Shown: positions 23,907-33,481 of the stretch, piece by piece
Layout: each line of letters begins with the position of its first letter
Numbering within the stretch: the stretch's first letter is position 1
Source of the DNA: Actinomycetes bacterium
GTDB taxonomy: Bacteria; Actinomycetota; Thermoleophilia; Solirubrobacterales; Solirubrobacteraceae
DNA length: 36,766 nucleotides
NCBI GenBank assembly: GCA_021784895.1
Contig: JAJYHG010000080.1
Location: 1-36,766, forward strand
Reading direction: 5' to 3'
Notes under the pieces: generated by a model
What the model was told of the DNA's origin: nothing
Databases searched by the model: none
The model's input: only the letters and a program-made list of their open reading frames with translations
Made by a program: the position numbers and the translations under genes

Positions 23907-24389
23907 GTGGCCGATGAACTGATCCCCACGCTCGAGCTGCCCGCGTCCGCGCGCGCAGCCAGCAGGTTCCGCAGCGCCTACCGGCGCTTCTCCTATGAGG
24001 CTCGCCACCCCGAGAACCACAGGCAGCTCGTGCGCTTCCTCTGCGTGGGCGCTTCCGGCTACGTGGTCAACACACTGTCGTTCTGGATCTTCATCCACCC
24101 GATCGCCCTGGACTACAGGCTCTCATTTGTCGCCGCCTTCCTCTGCGGCAGCGCCAACAACTTCGTCTGGAACCGGCACTGGACCTTCAAGGCCAACCAT
24201 GAGGGTGCCGCCCGCCAGGCGGTCCGGTTCATCCTCGTGCAGACAACCGTCGCGGCCTGCGCCTACGGGGTGATGCTCGGCCTGGTCGCGAGCACCAACA
24301 TCTGGAAGGTCCCGGCTGATGCGCTCGCGTGGATAATCGTCACGCCCGTCTCCTTCCTGGTTCAGAAGCTCTGGAGCTTCAAGGCCTGA
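23907..24389 (+). CDS. GtrA-family membrane protein
   Basis: GTG 23907 (or TTG 23898) gives about 160 aa. It has four membrane spans, starting QLVRFLCVGASGYVVNTLSFW, and the typical SANNFVWNRHWTFKA segment. It ends in PVSFLVQKLWSFKA. GtrA proteins are thought to flip polyprenyl-linked sugars or help glycosylate surface polymers. The stop TGA at 24387-24389 lies in a CTGA overlap with the next gene, a membrane glycosyltransferase-like protein, which fits a shared role in cell-surface glycan assembly. Confidence 0.88.
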   Translation: MADELIPTLELPASARAASRFRSAYRRFSYEARHPENHRQLVRFLCVGASGYVVNTLSFWIFIHPIALDYRLSFVAAFLCGSANNFVWNRHWTFKANHEGAARQAVRFILVQTTVAACAYGVMLGLVASTNIWKVPADALAWIIVTPVSFLVQKLWSFKA

Positions 24390-26245
24390 GTCCCGGCCGC
24401 CCGCGCGGCGTCCGGCTGACGGCCAGCACGGTCGCCAGCGGCCGGCGCGCTCTAGCCGCAGCCGGCCTCTGGCTCACGCTGGCGCTGGCCGGGCTGGCGG
24501 CGCTGGCCGGGCTGGCACCCGCGGCGGCACTGGCGGCCGGCAATCCGCCGGGCCAGCCCCCGCCGGTCTCCGCGCCGCCGGGGACGCCGGTGCTCGTGGC
24601 CGGGCCCTTTCACGGGCCCGGGCCCCACCAGCTGAGCGCGATGACAAGCCCGCCCGCGGGCTTTCACCTGGACGGCAACCAGGTCCTGGCGCTCGCCTAC
24701 CGCAACAGCGTTGTGCAGCGCGAGCTGCGCCGCTATCCGCACCTGGCCGCCTACGTCTACACGCGCGGGTTTGGCTTCTGGCAGGTGAGCCTGTTCACGC
24801 CGCCACCGCCCGCCGGTCCCGCGCACCAGATCGAGATGCTCCAGCTCTACGTCTCCGACCCGGCCGCCGCGGTCACGCAGGTCTGGACGCAGTATCAGGT
24901 CGCCTGGACGATGGCGCGCGGCTACCCGGGCGCGTTTGGGCGCGTGATCAACAAGCCCTACATCTGGCTCGGGCTCTGCGCCGCCTTTCTGCTGCCGTTC
25001 ATCCCCTGGCGTCGCCGGCCGACCCTGTGGCACCTGGACCTGCTGATGCTGCTCGGCTTTTCGATCTCGCTGGACGCGTTCAACAACGCCAGCCTGAGCC
25101 TGTCGGTGCCGCTGGTGTACCCGTTCCTGCTCTACCTGTTCGGCCGCATGCTGTTCTTGGCGGCCGGCCGCGGACGGCCCCGTGAGCCGCTGCGGAGCTG
25201 GCTGCCGACGCCCTGGCTGGCGGTCGCGCTGATCTTCCTGATCGGCTTCCGGATCGGCCTCGATGTGGTCGACTCCAACGTGATCGACGTCGGTTTTGCG
25301 GGCGTGATCGGCGCCGACAAGCTCGTCCACGGCGTGGCGCTGTACGGGCACTGGCCCGCCGACAACCCCGCCGGCGACACCTATGGCCCGATCAACTACC
25401 TCGCCTACGTGCCGTTCCGGCTGATCTTTGGCTGGAGCGGCCAGTGGGACAGCCTGCCCGCTGCGCACGCCGCCGCGATCGCCTTTGACCTGCTGACCAT
25501 GGCGGGGCTGTTCGTGCTCGGCAAGAGCGCTCGCAGCGTGCGCACGGGCGTGATGCTCGCCTACCTCTGGGCGTCCTACCCGTTCACCGCCTACGTGCTG
25601 ATGTCCAACTCCAACGACACGCTGGTGGCGCTGATGATCGTCGCCTCGCTGGTGATGGTCCGCCTGGCGACGATGCGCGGCCTGCTCGGCGCGATGGCCG
25701 GCCTGACGAAGTTTGCGCCGCTCGGGCTGGCGCCGCTACTGTGGCGCGGGGTCGGCCCGCGGCTGCCTTCGCGCCGGGCGACGTTCAGGTTCACGACCGT
25801 CTATCTGCTGACCGTGCTGGTGGCGATGATGCCCGTCTTCCTCACCCATGACTGGTACTGGTTCTGGCATGACACGGTCGTCTACCAGGCCACCCGGCCG
25901 GCGCCGTTCTCGATCTGGGGTCTCTGGGGTGGCTTCTACCAGACGCTGGCGCTGCCCGAGCACACGGTGCTCGGCCTGGCGGTGGTGCTCGGCCTGGCGG
26001 CGCCGTTCTGGCCCCGCGGTGATCGCACGCTCGTGGAGGTGGCCGCGCTGGGGGCGGCGATCATCATCTGCATGCAGATGGGGATTACATACTGGTTCTA
26101 CCTCTACATCGCCTGGTTCTTCCCGCTGGTGATAATCGCGCTGGTGCTCGCGCACCCCGAGCCCGCGGGCCGTGCGCGTGATCAGATGGAGCTCCCCGGT
26201 CAGATCCGGGCCGGCCTCCTGCCCGCCGCCGTTACTCGACCGTGA
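24386..26245 (+). CDS. multi-pass membrane protein, GT-C glycosyltransferase-like
   Basis: From the putative CTG start at 24386 the product has about 619 aa; the only usual start upstream is GTG 24329, 61 bases inside gtrA. It has an N-terminal signal or anchor (LAAAGLWLTLALAGLAALAG) and an extracytoplasmic domain of about 150 residues (GFHLDGNQVLALAYRN, YTRGFGFWQVSLF). About ten membrane spans follow. The loop HGVALYGHWP with TYGPINYLAYVPF is the kind seen in GT-C/GT87-type mannosyltransferases that use lipid-linked sugars. Donor and acceptor are unknown. Its 3' end overlaps glmS, convergent, by 14 bases. Confidence 0.7.
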   Translation: MSPGRPRGVRLTASTVASGRRALAAAGLWLTLALAGLAALAGLAPAAALAAGNPPGQPPPVSAPPGTPVLVAGPFHGPGPHQLSAMTSPPAGFHLDGNQVLALAYRNSVVQRELRRYPHLAAYVYTRGFGFWQVSLFTPPPPAGPAHQIEMLQLYVSDPAAAVTQVWTQYQVAWTMARGYPGAFGRVINKPYIWLGLCAAFLLPFIPWRRRPTLWHLDLLMLLGFSISLDAFNNASLSLSVPLVYPFLLYLFGRMLFLAAGRGRPREPLRSWLPTPWLAVALIFLIGFRIGLDVVDSNVIDVGFAGVIGADKLVHGVALYGHWPADNPAGDTYGPINYLAYVPFRLIFGWSGQWDSLPAAHAAAIAFDLLTMAGLFVLGKSARSVRTGVMLAYLWASYPFTAYVLMSNSNDTLVALMIVASLVMVRLATMRGLLGAMAGLTKFAPLGLAPLLWRGVGPRLPSRRATFRFTTVYLLTVLVAMMPVFLTHDWYWFWHDTVVYQATRPAPFSIWGLWGGFYQTLALPEHTVLGLAVVLGLAAPFWPRGDRTLVEVAALGAAIIICMQMGITYWFYLYIAWFFPLVIIALVLAHPEPAGRARDQMELPGQIRAGLLPAAVTRP

Positions 26246-30478: not shown

Positions 30479-31110
30479 GCGCCCAGGGGCTCACGCACCG
30501 CTTCGGGGCGCGCATGGCGCTTGAGGACGTCAGCTTTGACGTCCACGCAGGTGAGCTGGTCGCGGTGATCGGGCCCAACGGAGCCGGGAAGACGACGCTG
30601 TTGTCCCTGCTGGCGGGCGTACTCTCGCCCAGCGGTGGCTCTGTGCGGCGGCCCGCTGGCCGCCGCAGCGTCGGCTGGGTGCCGCAGCAGCCTGCGCTCT
30701 ACTCCAGGCTGACGGTCACCGAGAACCTCGAGCTGTTCGCCCGGCTCGAGCGCCGGCCCGACCCGCGGCGGTCAGCGGCGGCGATGCTCGAGCAGGCGGG
30801 GCTCGCCGAGCGCGCGGACGAGCTCGTCAGCCGCCTGTCCGGCGGTAACCAGCAGCGCGTCAACATCGCCATCGGACTGCTGGGCGAGCCCGCCGTACTG
30901 CTGCTCGACGAGCCATCCTCCTCGCTTGACCCCCGTCAGCGCGAACGGCTGTGGGAGTTCATCGTCGCGCTCGCCGGCCGGGGTACGGGTGTCGTGTACT
31001 CCACCCACGACCTGCTCGAGGCGCGCCGCCACGCGGACCGCGTGGCGGCGCTTGACGCTGGGCGGCTGGTGTATTCGGGCCCGCCGGCGGGGATGGAGTG
31101 GGAGCTCTGA
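30451..31110 (+). CDS. ABC-2 exporter ATPase
   Basis: The 219-aa protein has one ABC domain: Walker A GPNGAGKTTLL (about 43-53), Q-loop VPQQPALYSRLTV, signature LSGGNQQRVNIA, Walker B VLLLDEPSSSLD and H-loop YSTHD. It pairs with the downstream membrane protein to form an exporter. The stop shares a base with the permease start (TGATG), so the two are coupled. ATG 30451 lies inside the AI-2E gene. No substrate is indicated. Confidence 0.9.
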   Translation: MDDRPAAALSAQGLTHRFGARMALEDVSFDVHAGELVAVIGPNGAGKTTLLSLLAGVLSPSGGSVRRPAGRRSVGWVPQQPALYSRLTVTENLELFARLERRPDPRRSAAAMLEQAGLAERADELVSRLSGGNQQRVNIAIGLLGEPAVLLLDEPSSSLDPRQRERLWEFIVALAGRGTGVVYSTHDLLEARRHADRVAALDAGRLVYSGPPAGMEWEL

Positions 31111-32468
31111 TGCGCTGGCTGCTGGCCAAGGACCTGCGGTTGCTCAGGCGCTCGCCGCTGCTGCTCGGAACGCTGGTCATCTACCCGCTCACGATCGCGC
31201 TGCTGATCGGCTTTGCCGTCTCGAGCCCGCCCGGCAAGCCGGCCGTTGCGGTCTACAGCGGCGTGCGCGCCGGGCAGGGGAAGATCGCCTTCGGCTCGCA
31301 GCGGATCAGCCTGGCGGGCTATGCCGATCAGCTGTTTAGCTCGATCGACCGGATCCCAGCGAGTTCGCCGCGGCAGGCGGTGGCCGACGTCCGTGACGGG
31401 CGGGCGCTGGCCGCGCTGATCATCCCTGCAGGCATCGACCACCAGATCCAGCAGCTGATCACCAATGGGCTCGGCAATCCAACCGTGCAGGTGGTGCTCA
31501 GCAGCCGCAACCCGCTCGAGCGCCAGCTCGCGCACGACGCGATTCAGACGCGCGTCGACGCCGTCCAGTATGCCGTCAGCAGGGAGCTGCTGAAGACGGT
31601 TGCGGCCGACCTGCGCAAGCTGCTGGACGGCGGCACGGTCAGCTTTCTCGGGCGCTCGATCCATTTGCTCGGACTGCGGGGGAGCGAGGCGATCGTGCGC
31701 CGCACGATCGCCTCGCTCCCCCGGGTGTCATCCCAGCGCCCAGCGCTCAAGCAGGTGATCAGCTTCGCTCAGGTGGCGATCGCCGGCCTCGCGATCGCCG
31801 GGCCGGGGATCGGCGGCGTGACGGCGCCGCTGACGGTCAGGCAGTCGGCGATCGACGCGAGCACGACCCCGACCGTCAACTATGCGGTGGCGATCGCCGC
31901 GGTGGTGCTGTTGATGTTCGTGGCGCTGCTGGTCGCGGCCGGCATGCTCGCGCTGGAGCGGGCCGAGCACGCCTACGAGCGGCTCGTGCGCGGACTGGTC
32001 AGCCGCGAGGCGCTGCTGGCCGAGAAGGTCGTCCTGGCGGCCGCCTGCGCACTGGTGATGACGCTCGCTGTGGTCGCCGCGATCGCGATCTTCGTCAGTC
32101 TCGACTGGGGCAGGTTCGAGCTCTGGGTGCTCGCCCTGGCGTTGGGGGCGGCGGCCTTTGCGGCCCTGGGCGTGGCCGTTGGGGCGATCGCACGCGATGT
32201 CAGCGTCGCCTCGCTGCTGGCGTTCCTGATCTCGCTGCCGGTGGCGTTCATCGCGCTGGTGCCGGCGCAGGCGGTCTCCTCGGGAGTGCGCACCGCCCTG
32301 GCGGTGATCTCGTTCCTGTTCCCCTTCCGGCCGGCGCTGACCGCCACCGCGGCCGCCTTCAGCCCGGGTCCGCTGGGCGTCGGCGGAGCGCTCCTGCACC
32401 TTGTCGCCCTGACCGCCGCCTACCTGCTGCTTGCGCGGGTCGCACTGACGCGCTTTGCTGAGCGCTGA
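31110..32468 (+). CDS. ABC-2 type permease
   Basis: ATG 31110 gives 452 aa. It has an N-terminal membrane span (LGTLVIYPLTIALLIGFAV) after RWLLAKDLRLLRRSP, a large extracytoplasmic domain of about 250 residues (SSIDRIPASSPRQAVADV, LQLITNGL-like) and a C-terminal set of five to six spans. This is the layout of ABC-2 permeases. Inside the external domain the codons at 31677-31723 form a perfect palindrome, encoding the same peptide RGSEAIVRRTIASLPR on both strands. The exported substrate is unknown. Confidence 0.85.
   Translation: MRWLLAKDLRLLRRSPLLLGTLVIYPLTIALLIGFAVSSPPGKPAVAVYSGVRAGQGKIAFGSQRISLAGYADQLFSSIDRIPASSPRQAVADVRDGRALAALIIPAGIDHQIQQLITNGLGNPTVQVVLSSRNPLERQLAHDAIQTRVDAVQYAVSRELLKTVAADLRKLLDGGTVSFLGRSIHLLGLRGSEAIVRRTIASLPRVSSQRPALKQVISFAQVAIAGLAIAGPGIGGVTAPLTVRQSAIDASTTPTVNYAVAIAAVVLLMFVALLVAAGMLALERAEHAYERLVRGLVSREALLAEKVVLAAACALVMTLAVVAAIAIFVSLDWGRFELWVLALALGAAAFAALGVAVGAIARDVSVASLLAFLISLPVAFIALVPAQAVSSGVRTALAVISFLFPFRPALTATAAAFSPGPLGVGGALLHLVALTAAYLLLARVALTRFAER
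31677..31723. repeat. perfect 47-base palindrome inside the permease gene
   Basis: CGGGGGAGCGAGGCGATCGT plus GCG (31677-31699) is followed by one base (31700) and then its exact inverse complement (31701-31723): 23-bp arms, no mismatch. Because it starts on a codon boundary, both strands translate to RGSEAIVRRTIASLPR. The arms end sharply (31676 and 31724 do not pair). Confidence 0.97.
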
Positions 32469-32477
32469 GCGCGCTCG

Positions 32478-33266
32478 TCAGGCGCTCGGCCTGACCCACA
32501 GCCAGACGGCCAGCCCGAGTCCGAGCAGCGCCACGGCCCAGCGGGTGATGACTCGCGGCAGCGCGCGCGTAAGCGCCGGGCCGATGACCGAGCCCGCCAG
32601 CGCGCCCGCACCTAGTGCCGCCGCGGCCACCCAGTGCACGGGGGCGAAACAGGCGAGCAGGATCCCAGCCGGCAGCGTGACCGAGCCGTTGATCATGTTC
32701 TTGACGGCGTTGGCCACCGGCAGGTCGCGTTCGACCATCACCAAGAGCAGGGCCAGGATCATCACCCCGGAGCCGGCCCCGAAGTAGCCGCCGTACACGG
32801 CCAGCAGCGCCAGCACCCCCGCCAGAAACGGCCGGCGCCGGCCGCTGGCGCCCGCCGGGCCCGGGCGCTGCGCGCTCCCGCTGCGGGCCTGGCGCAGGCC
32901 GCTCAGCCACGGCTCGGCGATCAGTGCCAGCGCCGCCGTCGCGATCAGGAACGGAACCACCCGTGCAAACGCGCCGGGCGGCGTGACGAGCAGCAGCAGC
33001 GCGCCCGTCGCCCCGCCCGCTGCGGTCAGCGGCAGCCAGCGCGCCAGCCAGCTGCCCCAGCCGGCGAGCTCGCGACGGGAGCCGATCGCGGAGCCCGGCC
33101 AGCAGGCGTTCAGCGCCACGAGGTTGGTGGCGTTGGCCGCAAACGGTGCCAGGCCGACAGCCAGCAGCGCCGGGTAGGAGACCAGCGAGGTGATGCCGCC
33201 GGCGGTGCCGATGATCCCGGCGATCACGCCCGCTATGACCAGGAAGCCTAGGTGCAGGACGCTCAG
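32478..33266 (-). CDS. TauE/SafE (TSUP) family permease
   Basis: From a putative CTG at 33266 the product has 262 aa: LSVLHLGFLVIAGVIAGIIGT-like start, then GGITSLVSYPALLAVG and NATNLVAL. A second half has VLALLAVYGGYFGAGSGVMILALL and NAVKNMINGSVTLPAGILLA. These paired halves with eight or so spans are typical of the TSUP family, which moves sulfite, sulfoacetate or related anions. No ATG, GTG or TTG fits ahead of the first span; CTG 33266 overlaps the stop of the upstream small gene as CTGA. The next GTG would remove part of span 1. Substrate unknown. Confidence 0.82.
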   Translation of the reverse strand: MSVLHLGFLVIAGVIAGIIGTAGGITSLVSYPALLAVGLAPFAANATNLVALNACWPGSAIGSRRELAGWGSWLARWLPLTAAGGATGALLLLVTPPGAFARVVPFLIATAALALIAEPWLSGLRQARSGSAQRPGPAGASGRRRPFLAGVLALLAVYGGYFGAGSGVMILALLLVMVERDLPVANAVKNMINGSVTLPAGILLACFAPVHWVAAAALGAGALAGSVIGPALTRALPRVITRWAVALLGLGLAVWLWVRPSA

Positions 33267-33481
33267 CGCTGACCTGTGACCTTCATGAAGCGCCAGGCGC
33301 TCAGGAGGCTGAGCAGGAGCAGGACGATCGGCAGCCCCAGGCCGATCACGCCCGCGATCGCCAGGACCAGGGTGACGACCCCAGCTACGCCGGTGCCGGC
33401 GCCCGCCAGCACGAGCCGGTAGGCCTGCTGCTCGCGCTGGCGCCGGGGGAGGTGATCGCCTCGCTTCTGGATCCCTGCCAT
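33263..33481 (-). CDS. small two-span membrane protein
   Basis: ATG 33481 (MAGIQKRGDHLPRRQREQQA) gives 72 aa with a basic N-terminus, two hydrophobic segments (about 23-44 and 45-61) and a short basic C-terminal tail ending MKVTGQR. I recognise no family. Its stop overlaps the TauE-like gene as CTGA. An upstream open frame exists but overlaps a gene on the other strand and is not credible. Confidence 0.6.
   Translation of the reverse strand: MAGIQKRGDHLPRRQREQQAYRLVLAGAGTGVAGVVTLVLAIAGVIGLGLPIVLLLLSLLSAWRFMKVTGQR

What the first reader, a model, noticed from the sequence alone, without database searches (positions are those of the whole stretch)
32478..33266. Second CTG start in a CTGA overlap (TauE-like gene)
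The TauE-like permease also lacks a usual start. CTG 33266 overlaps the stop of the 72-aa membrane gene as CTGA and yields the expected first span. Two such cases in one window suggest that this organism uses CTGA like ATGA/GTGA for coupled restart, and that standard gene callers misplace these starts.
Basis: partly seen in the sequence, partly recalled or inferred. Interest (0 to 1): 0.5.

Follow-up and report, generated by a model that had tools for sequence, protein, structure and literature searches.

The report
CTG start codon, conserved in relatives
A membrane-transporter gene in this actinobacterium appears to begin with CTG, a codon bacteria very rarely use to start a protein; close relatives keep it, and other genes of the same genome have CTG where relatives have the usual start codons, so it looks like a working start signal that ordinary gene finders would miss.

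Summary
In detail: CTGA at 33266-33263 (-) joins the stop of a 72-aa gene to a TauE/SafE permease, with no ATG/GTG/TTG nearer than 249 nt upstream or 39 nt downstream. The CTG is very likely a real start. Four same-genus orthologs have CTG at the same codon, and in three of them an in-frame stop 15-30 nt upstream excludes any earlier start. Other genes of this genome do the same. Riboflavin synthase begins CTG-TTC-ACC-GG where relatives have ATG, GTG or TTG; one exact junction occurs in 12 of 146 family genomes with C (4), G (6) or A (2) as first base of the start codon. UDP-GlcNAc 2-epimerase, a chorismate-binding (MenF-like) gene and DprA show the pattern too. CTGA overlaps occur, but CTG also starts genes 1 to 16 nt behind a stop. 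The excess of CTGA junctions lacking another start is weak and threshold-dependent in one sampled relative and absent in three. Best explanation: the ordinary initiator tRNA restarts at a weak NTG codon just behind a stop, probably at reduced yield. The start codon rests on comparison; coupling and yield are inferred.

The parts
32478..33266 (-). TauE/SafE-family permease gene, 262 codons, starting with CTG
   Evidence: PF01925, 92.2 bits, residues 10-255
33263..33266 (-). CTGA: start codon of the permease overlapping the TGA stop of the upstream gene
33263..33481 (-). 72-aa membrane-protein gene directly upstream (ATG start); its end (W-R-F-x-x-V-T-G-x-R-stop) is conserved before the four orthologous permeases; no Pfam match
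33267..33286 (-). stretch just upstream of the CTG with AGG at 33275-33273, Shine-Dalgarno-like; predicted pairing with the anti-SD core -6.3 kcal/mol, at the 9% mark of internal CTGs of relative G012

Best explanation
The TauE-like permease is translated from CTG 33266. Ribosomes finishing the 72-aa gene stop at the overlapping TGA. Ribosomes held there, helped by a short Shine-Dalgarno-like stretch, restart on CUG with the ordinary CAU-anticodon initiator tRNA, which makes two of three base pairs, probably at a lower yield than AUG or GUG would give. In the closely related genomes G000, G012, G020 and G024 (nearest named record Conexibacter sp. S30A1), with G013 and G008 sharing some cases, CTG has become an acceptable fourth NTG start for perhaps 1% of genes. 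Every case checked in detail lies at, or within 16 nt of, an upstream stop. Supported by comparison: CTG is the start codon. Inferred: coupling, lower yield, and use of the normal initiator tRNA.
For: TauE: orthologs L002 to L005 (73-80% identical) all have CTG at the same column. In-frame stops end 15, 15 and 30 nt upstream in L002, L003 and L004, with no ATG/GTG/TTG until +39, +54 and +27; in L005 the next one after the CTG is at +279. Of the 15 other loci read, 11 have ATG, GTG or TTG in that very column. RibE: LFTGL starts with CTG in G000, G012, G020 and G024; the other 7 of 11 congeners have GTG (3), TTG (2) or ATG (2) at that codon; in G000 the in-frame stop ends 27 nt upstream and the next usual start is at +42. 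The identical junction GAGTGGTGAG-NTG-TTCAC occurs in 12 of 146 family genomes with N = C in 4, G in 6, A in 2. 2-epimerase: of 15 loci read, CTG 5 (two with usual codons close by: G004 at -9 and +6, G000 at +18), ATG 5, TTG 3, GTG 2 in one column. MenF-like: no usual start near in G012, G000 and G008; 12 of 15 loci have one. Family scan: 5 of 5 homologs without a usual start have CTG there. Coupled setting. SD-like pairing stronger than the median internal CTG in 7 of 9 cases listed. Initiator-type anticodon loop with CAT found in all five genomes searched.
Against: No peptide, ribosome-profiling or reporter data. In TauE codons 2-13 the orthologs differ more by amino-acid changes than by silent ones (G000 against G012: 1 silent, 5 changing; codons 14-60: 12 and 3), so this stretch does not itself show protein-level constraint. 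SD-like pairing is weak for TauE in G013 and for DprA. The excess of CTGA junctions depends on the threshold. A start-column test on reciprocal best hits (G012 as target: 136 usable of 260 comparisons) gave only one clear CTG gene, RibE; the three other G012 genes without a nearby usual start held ATC, GCT or ACC in the column. In mycobacterial reporters CTG was not enriched as a leadered start (PMC4633059, passages), and neither wild-type nor variant initiator tRNA starts efficiently on CUG (PMC11497404, passages).
Confidence: 0.8

Rival explanations
1. The permease starts at a usual codon inside the first span (GTG 33227, +39), and the CTG is an untranslated or merely overlapping codon.
For: Codons 2-13 show no excess of silent changes among orthologs.
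Against: The first usual codon downstream is at +39, +39, +54, +27 and +279 in the five orthologs, so no shared site exists. Such starts would cut the first hydrophobic span. 11 of 15 other loci start at the CTG column. The codon-usage onset is at 33269.
Confidence: 0.06
2. The permease starts far upstream at GTG 33515 or beyond, overlapping the 72-aa gene along its whole length.
For: The frame in the window is open 432 nt upstream of the CTG.
Against: Three orthologs have an in-frame stop 15-30 nt upstream of the CTG. The conserved upstream gene occupies another frame there.
Confidence: 0.01
3. CTG initiation depends on the CTGA overlap: an organism-wide signal equivalent to ATGA/GTGA.
For: TauE in G000 and G013, the epimerase in G012, G000 and G013, MenF in G012 and G008, and DprA in G012, G000 and G013 sit in CTGA overlaps. 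There is a weak excess of unexplained CTGA junctions in G012 plus the window.
Against: RibE in four genomes, TauE in G012, G020 and G024, and MenF in G000 are CTG starts not overlapping the upstream gene's stop. TauE homologs of two mycobacteria and a Streptosporangiaceae MAG have CTG in the start column 9 and 15 nt after an in-frame TAA or TAG. No excess in the three other genomes sampled.
Confidence: 0.13

Closest known systems
Translational coupling by termination-reinitiation at -4 nt overlaps (ATGA and the like; Huber et al. 2019, PMC6728339, and the 2023 follow-up PMC10666635; passages read)
   Same: Stop and start codons share bases; short distance; Shine-Dalgarno-like stretch inside the upstream gene
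   Different: Start codon is CTG; 'CTGA' does not occur in the main text of PMC6728339. Coupling was not measured here.
Rare CTG/CUG starts of bacteria (CUG switches counted in PMC5622118: 2 of 61,358 ancestral AUG starts, 1 of 5,080 GUG, 1 of 2,468 UUG; passages)
   Same: CTG in place of ATG/GTG/TTG at an orthologous start
   Different: Here several genes of one small group carry it, one base alternates at an otherwise identical junction, and it is kept by up to five genomes (TauE)
TauE/SafE permease family (PF01925)
   Same: Nearly whole-length profile match well above the cutoff
   Different: Only the start codon was found unusual

Membership tests
TauE/SafE permease (PF01925) | Profile match above the curated cutoff over the domain | tested here: met
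   92.2 bits against 32.6; profile positions 2-236 of 237
TauE/SafE permease (PF01925) | Transport of sulfite or a related anion | not testable with these tools
   No assay
Termination-reinitiation gene pair | Stop and start codon overlap or lie very close on the same strand | tested here: met
   CTGA
Termination-reinitiation gene pair | Translation of the second gene depends on translation of the first | not testable with these tools
   Needs reporters
Termination-reinitiation gene pair | Start codon ATG, GTG or TTG | tested here: not met
   CTG in the window gene and in all four close orthologs
CTG-started bacterial genes | No usual start can serve, and homologs place a usual start at the same codon | tested here: met
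   TauE: frame closed in three orthologs, 11 of 15 other loci start in the same column; RibE and the 2-epimerase likewise
CTG-started bacterial genes | Protein N-terminus observed at the CTG | not testable with these tools
   No proteomics available

The most novel reading that the evidence does not exclude
In this branch of Solirubrobacterales the initiation machinery has loosened its check on the first codon base, so that CTG is a regular fourth NTG start: start codons of housekeeping genes drift among A, G, T and C, perhaps pushed in overlaps by the C-rich wobble position of the upstream gene's last codon. Around 1% of its proteins would then be mis-annotated at the N-terminus.
Probability: 0.25. 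Interest if true: 0.7.

Novelty: new variant of a known kind. Interest (0 to 1): 0.5.

Why it matters
CUG is regarded as a start that bacterial ribosomes largely refuse, and common gene finders leave it out (the latter recalled). Here is a small group of bacteria in which a strongly conserved protein N-terminus (riboflavin synthase) shows CTG where relatives have ATG, GTG or TTG, in part at one base of an otherwise identical junction. That gives a natural experiment on how strictly start codons are checked when the ribosome arrives from an upstream gene, and a simple correction for gene annotation in these high-GC genomes.

Tried and rejected
CTG as start of a ROK-like regulator in G012 (L031:13199): rejected. 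G013 and G000 have CTC there, and the frame upstream (IAEPASPGSV) is conserved, so its start lies earlier, perhaps at an ATC.

First gene call of G035 with self-training went wrong (110 of 224 genes without a usual start, probably antisense frames); replaced by seeding with the G012 codon model. The counts are not used.

Candidates not followed up: several of the 15 genes without a usual start (for example L033, L037, L041, L048, L053, L055, L060) and the CTGA junction at L026:834.

An initiator tRNA with a CAG anticodon: not seen in the pattern search. Among matches that look like an initiator anticodon loop, CAT occurs in all five genomes; the other recurrent matches (such as CGGGATTCGAACCCG) look like T-loops. 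One CGGGATCAGAACCCG match in G020 has a different loop and was not followed. The pattern would miss altered stems.

Start-column comparison of reciprocal best hits: too noisy for codon counts, because CTG is also a common leucine codon. It yielded RibE as the one clear CTG case in G012; a CTG row in G035 (L072) was rejected because ATGs lie upstream.

Papers: eight library searches, most with capped listings (for example 40 of 142). Nothing in the listings was about CTG starts in Solirubrobacterales (no paper with both terms). Five papers were read by passages only. Hecht et al. 2017 was seen only as cited in PMC10666635. Recalled, not from a call: the names RibD, RibE, MenF, WecB and ROK, the invariant MFTG start of riboflavin synthase, and what gene finders accept as starts.

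Full report
What is there. On the minus strand a 72-aa membrane-protein gene (ATG 33481, TGA 33265-33263) is followed in another frame by a 262-codon TauE/SafE permease whose first plausible codon is CTG 33266, so the junction reads CTGA. The permease frame has no ATG/GTG/TTG between GTG at -249 and GTG at +39. A codon-usage gene caller that knows nothing of start codons puts the onset of coding at 33269. Pfam assigns TauE over nearly its whole length.

Is the CTG the start? A search of 61 genomes (the window's own and 60 relatives) found matches in 29. The four closest orthologs (L002 in G020, L003 in G012, L004 in G024, L005 in G013; 73-80% identical) all carry CTG in the same column, and the upstream membrane gene is conserved. 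In L002, L003 and L004 the permease frame is closed by a stop ending 15, 15 and 30 nt before the CTG, and the first usual start codon comes at +39, +54 and +27, inside the first span. In L005 the frame is open upstream (nearest usual codon GTG at -312) and the first usual codon after the CTG is at +279. Of the 15 other loci read, 11 have ATG, GTG or TTG in the same column, and the other four have one within 9 nt. Of 80 named-record homologs, 69 could be read at this column; 64 have ATG (25), GTG (35) or TTG (4) within -24 to +12, and the other 5 all have CTG in the column itself. Two of the five are the G012 and G024 records, two are closely related mycobacteria (Mycolicibacterium llatzerense, Mycobacterium sp. 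ST-F2), one is a Streptosporangiaceae MAG.

Evidence against at the same site: in codons 2-13 the orthologs differ mostly by amino-acid changes (G000-G012: 1 silent, 5 changing), unlike codons 14-60 (12 silent, 3 changing). This stretch therefore gives no independent sign of protein-level constraint; the case rests on the closed frames, the column and the other genes.

Other genes. These counts include false positives from misplaced onsets, and not every candidate was followed. Individual checks: UDP-GlcNAc 2-epimerase: 15 loci read, start column CTG in G012, G020, G013, in G000 (with a GTG at +18) and in G004 (with GTG at -9 and +6); ATG in 5, TTG in 3, GTG in 2. Chorismate-binding, MenF-like gene: no usual start near in G012, G000 and G008, while 12 of 15 loci have one. 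DprA: CTGA at the junction in G012, G020, G000 and G013, though this N-terminus aligns less well, and the overlap with the upstream frame was checked in three of the four. Riboflavin synthase: CTG exactly at the MFTGL position in G012, G020, G024 and the window's own genome; GTG in 3, TTG in 2 and ATG in 2 of the other seven. A junction pattern search in 146 family genomes matched 12, with CTG in 4, GTG in 6 and ATG in 2 in the frame GAGTGGTGAG-NTG-TTCAC. The ROK-like candidate failed the check.

The CTGA idea. Verified CTG starts sit in CTGA overlaps in many cases, but RibE lies 1 nt after a stop, TauE in G012 and G020 15 nt and in G024 16 nt after the upstream gene's stop, and MenF in G000 3 or 6 nt after one. 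Among close gene pairs in G012 plus the window, CTGA-frame junctions lack another usual start within 45 nt in 6 of 25, against 6 of 106 controls (p=0.011). At +-30 nt p=0.225 and at +-60 nt p=0.043; with a stricter gene score p is 0.45, 0.021 and 0.081 at +-30, +-45 and +-60. G016 (0 of 15), G035 (1 of 14) and G053 (1 of 18) show nothing. Of the six G012-plus-window cases one is the window's own 24386 and one (L036:4328) is very likely its ortholog, so the six are not fully independent; one (L026:834) was not followed up; and the window's TauE junction is not among them, because its GTG at +39 counts as nearby. So CTGA is one place where a CTG start occurs, not a signal on a par with ATGA/GTGA.

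The other window case, CTG 24386, joins a gene ending QKLWSFKA-stop to a secreted-looking protein. A CTGA at this junction is seen in four orthologs (L152-L155) and a fifth, more distant one (L156), and translation from CTG leads into a signal-peptide-like stretch, but a GTG 57 nt upstream (window, L152, L153) or usual codons downstream (L154, L155, L156) remain possible.

How it probably works. A pattern search found the usual CAT initiator anticodon loop in all five genomes tried and no convincing CAG version. Predicted pairing to the anti-SD is stronger than that of most internal CTGs of G012 for TauE in G000, G012, G020 and G024, RibE, the epimerase and MenF, but not for TauE in G013 or DprA. 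I infer restart by ribosomes already on the message, with the normal initiator tRNA, on a weak codon. Published work fits a weak codon: CUG is not used as a common start in bacteria and neither initiator tRNA tested starts efficiently on it (PMC11497404, passages); CTG was not enriched in mycobacterial leadered reporters (PMC4633059, passages); switches to CUG were 2 of 61,358 for AUG ancestors (PMC5622118, passages, a count that may be low if it rests on annotated starts).

Verdict. Observation confirmed. The broader CTGA claim is only partly right. Frequency, from five checked genes (TauE, RibE, epimerase, MenF-like, DprA) in roughly 600 called, is of the order of 1% in G012; this is an estimate, not a census.

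Noticed in passing
window 24386-26245 (+): Second CTGA junction with a conserved upstream C-terminus (QKLWSFKA-stop) and a signal-peptide-like start; a GTG 57 nt upstream is the nearest usual alternative.
   Followed up: partly
L310 (window's own genome, G000:C10:3016-3603) and L044:3375-3971: Riboflavin synthase starts with CTG at the MFTGL position, 1 nt after the stop of the gene before it; relatives have ATG, GTG or TTG there.
   Followed up: yes
L031:13199-14338 and L166-L169: ROK-like regulator: three of four close orthologs have no usual start near the conserved N-terminus; an ATC is shared where the conserved frame begins, a possible ATC start.
   Followed up: partly
L240, L249, L272: TauE homologs of two mycobacteria and a Streptosporangiaceae MAG also have CTG in the start column, 9 nt (mycobacteria) and 15 nt after an in-frame TAA or TAG.
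   Followed up: partly
window 31098-32468 (+) and 32478-33266 (-): The permease gene converges with an ABC-2 transporter gene, with only 9 nt between the two stop codons.
   Followed up: no
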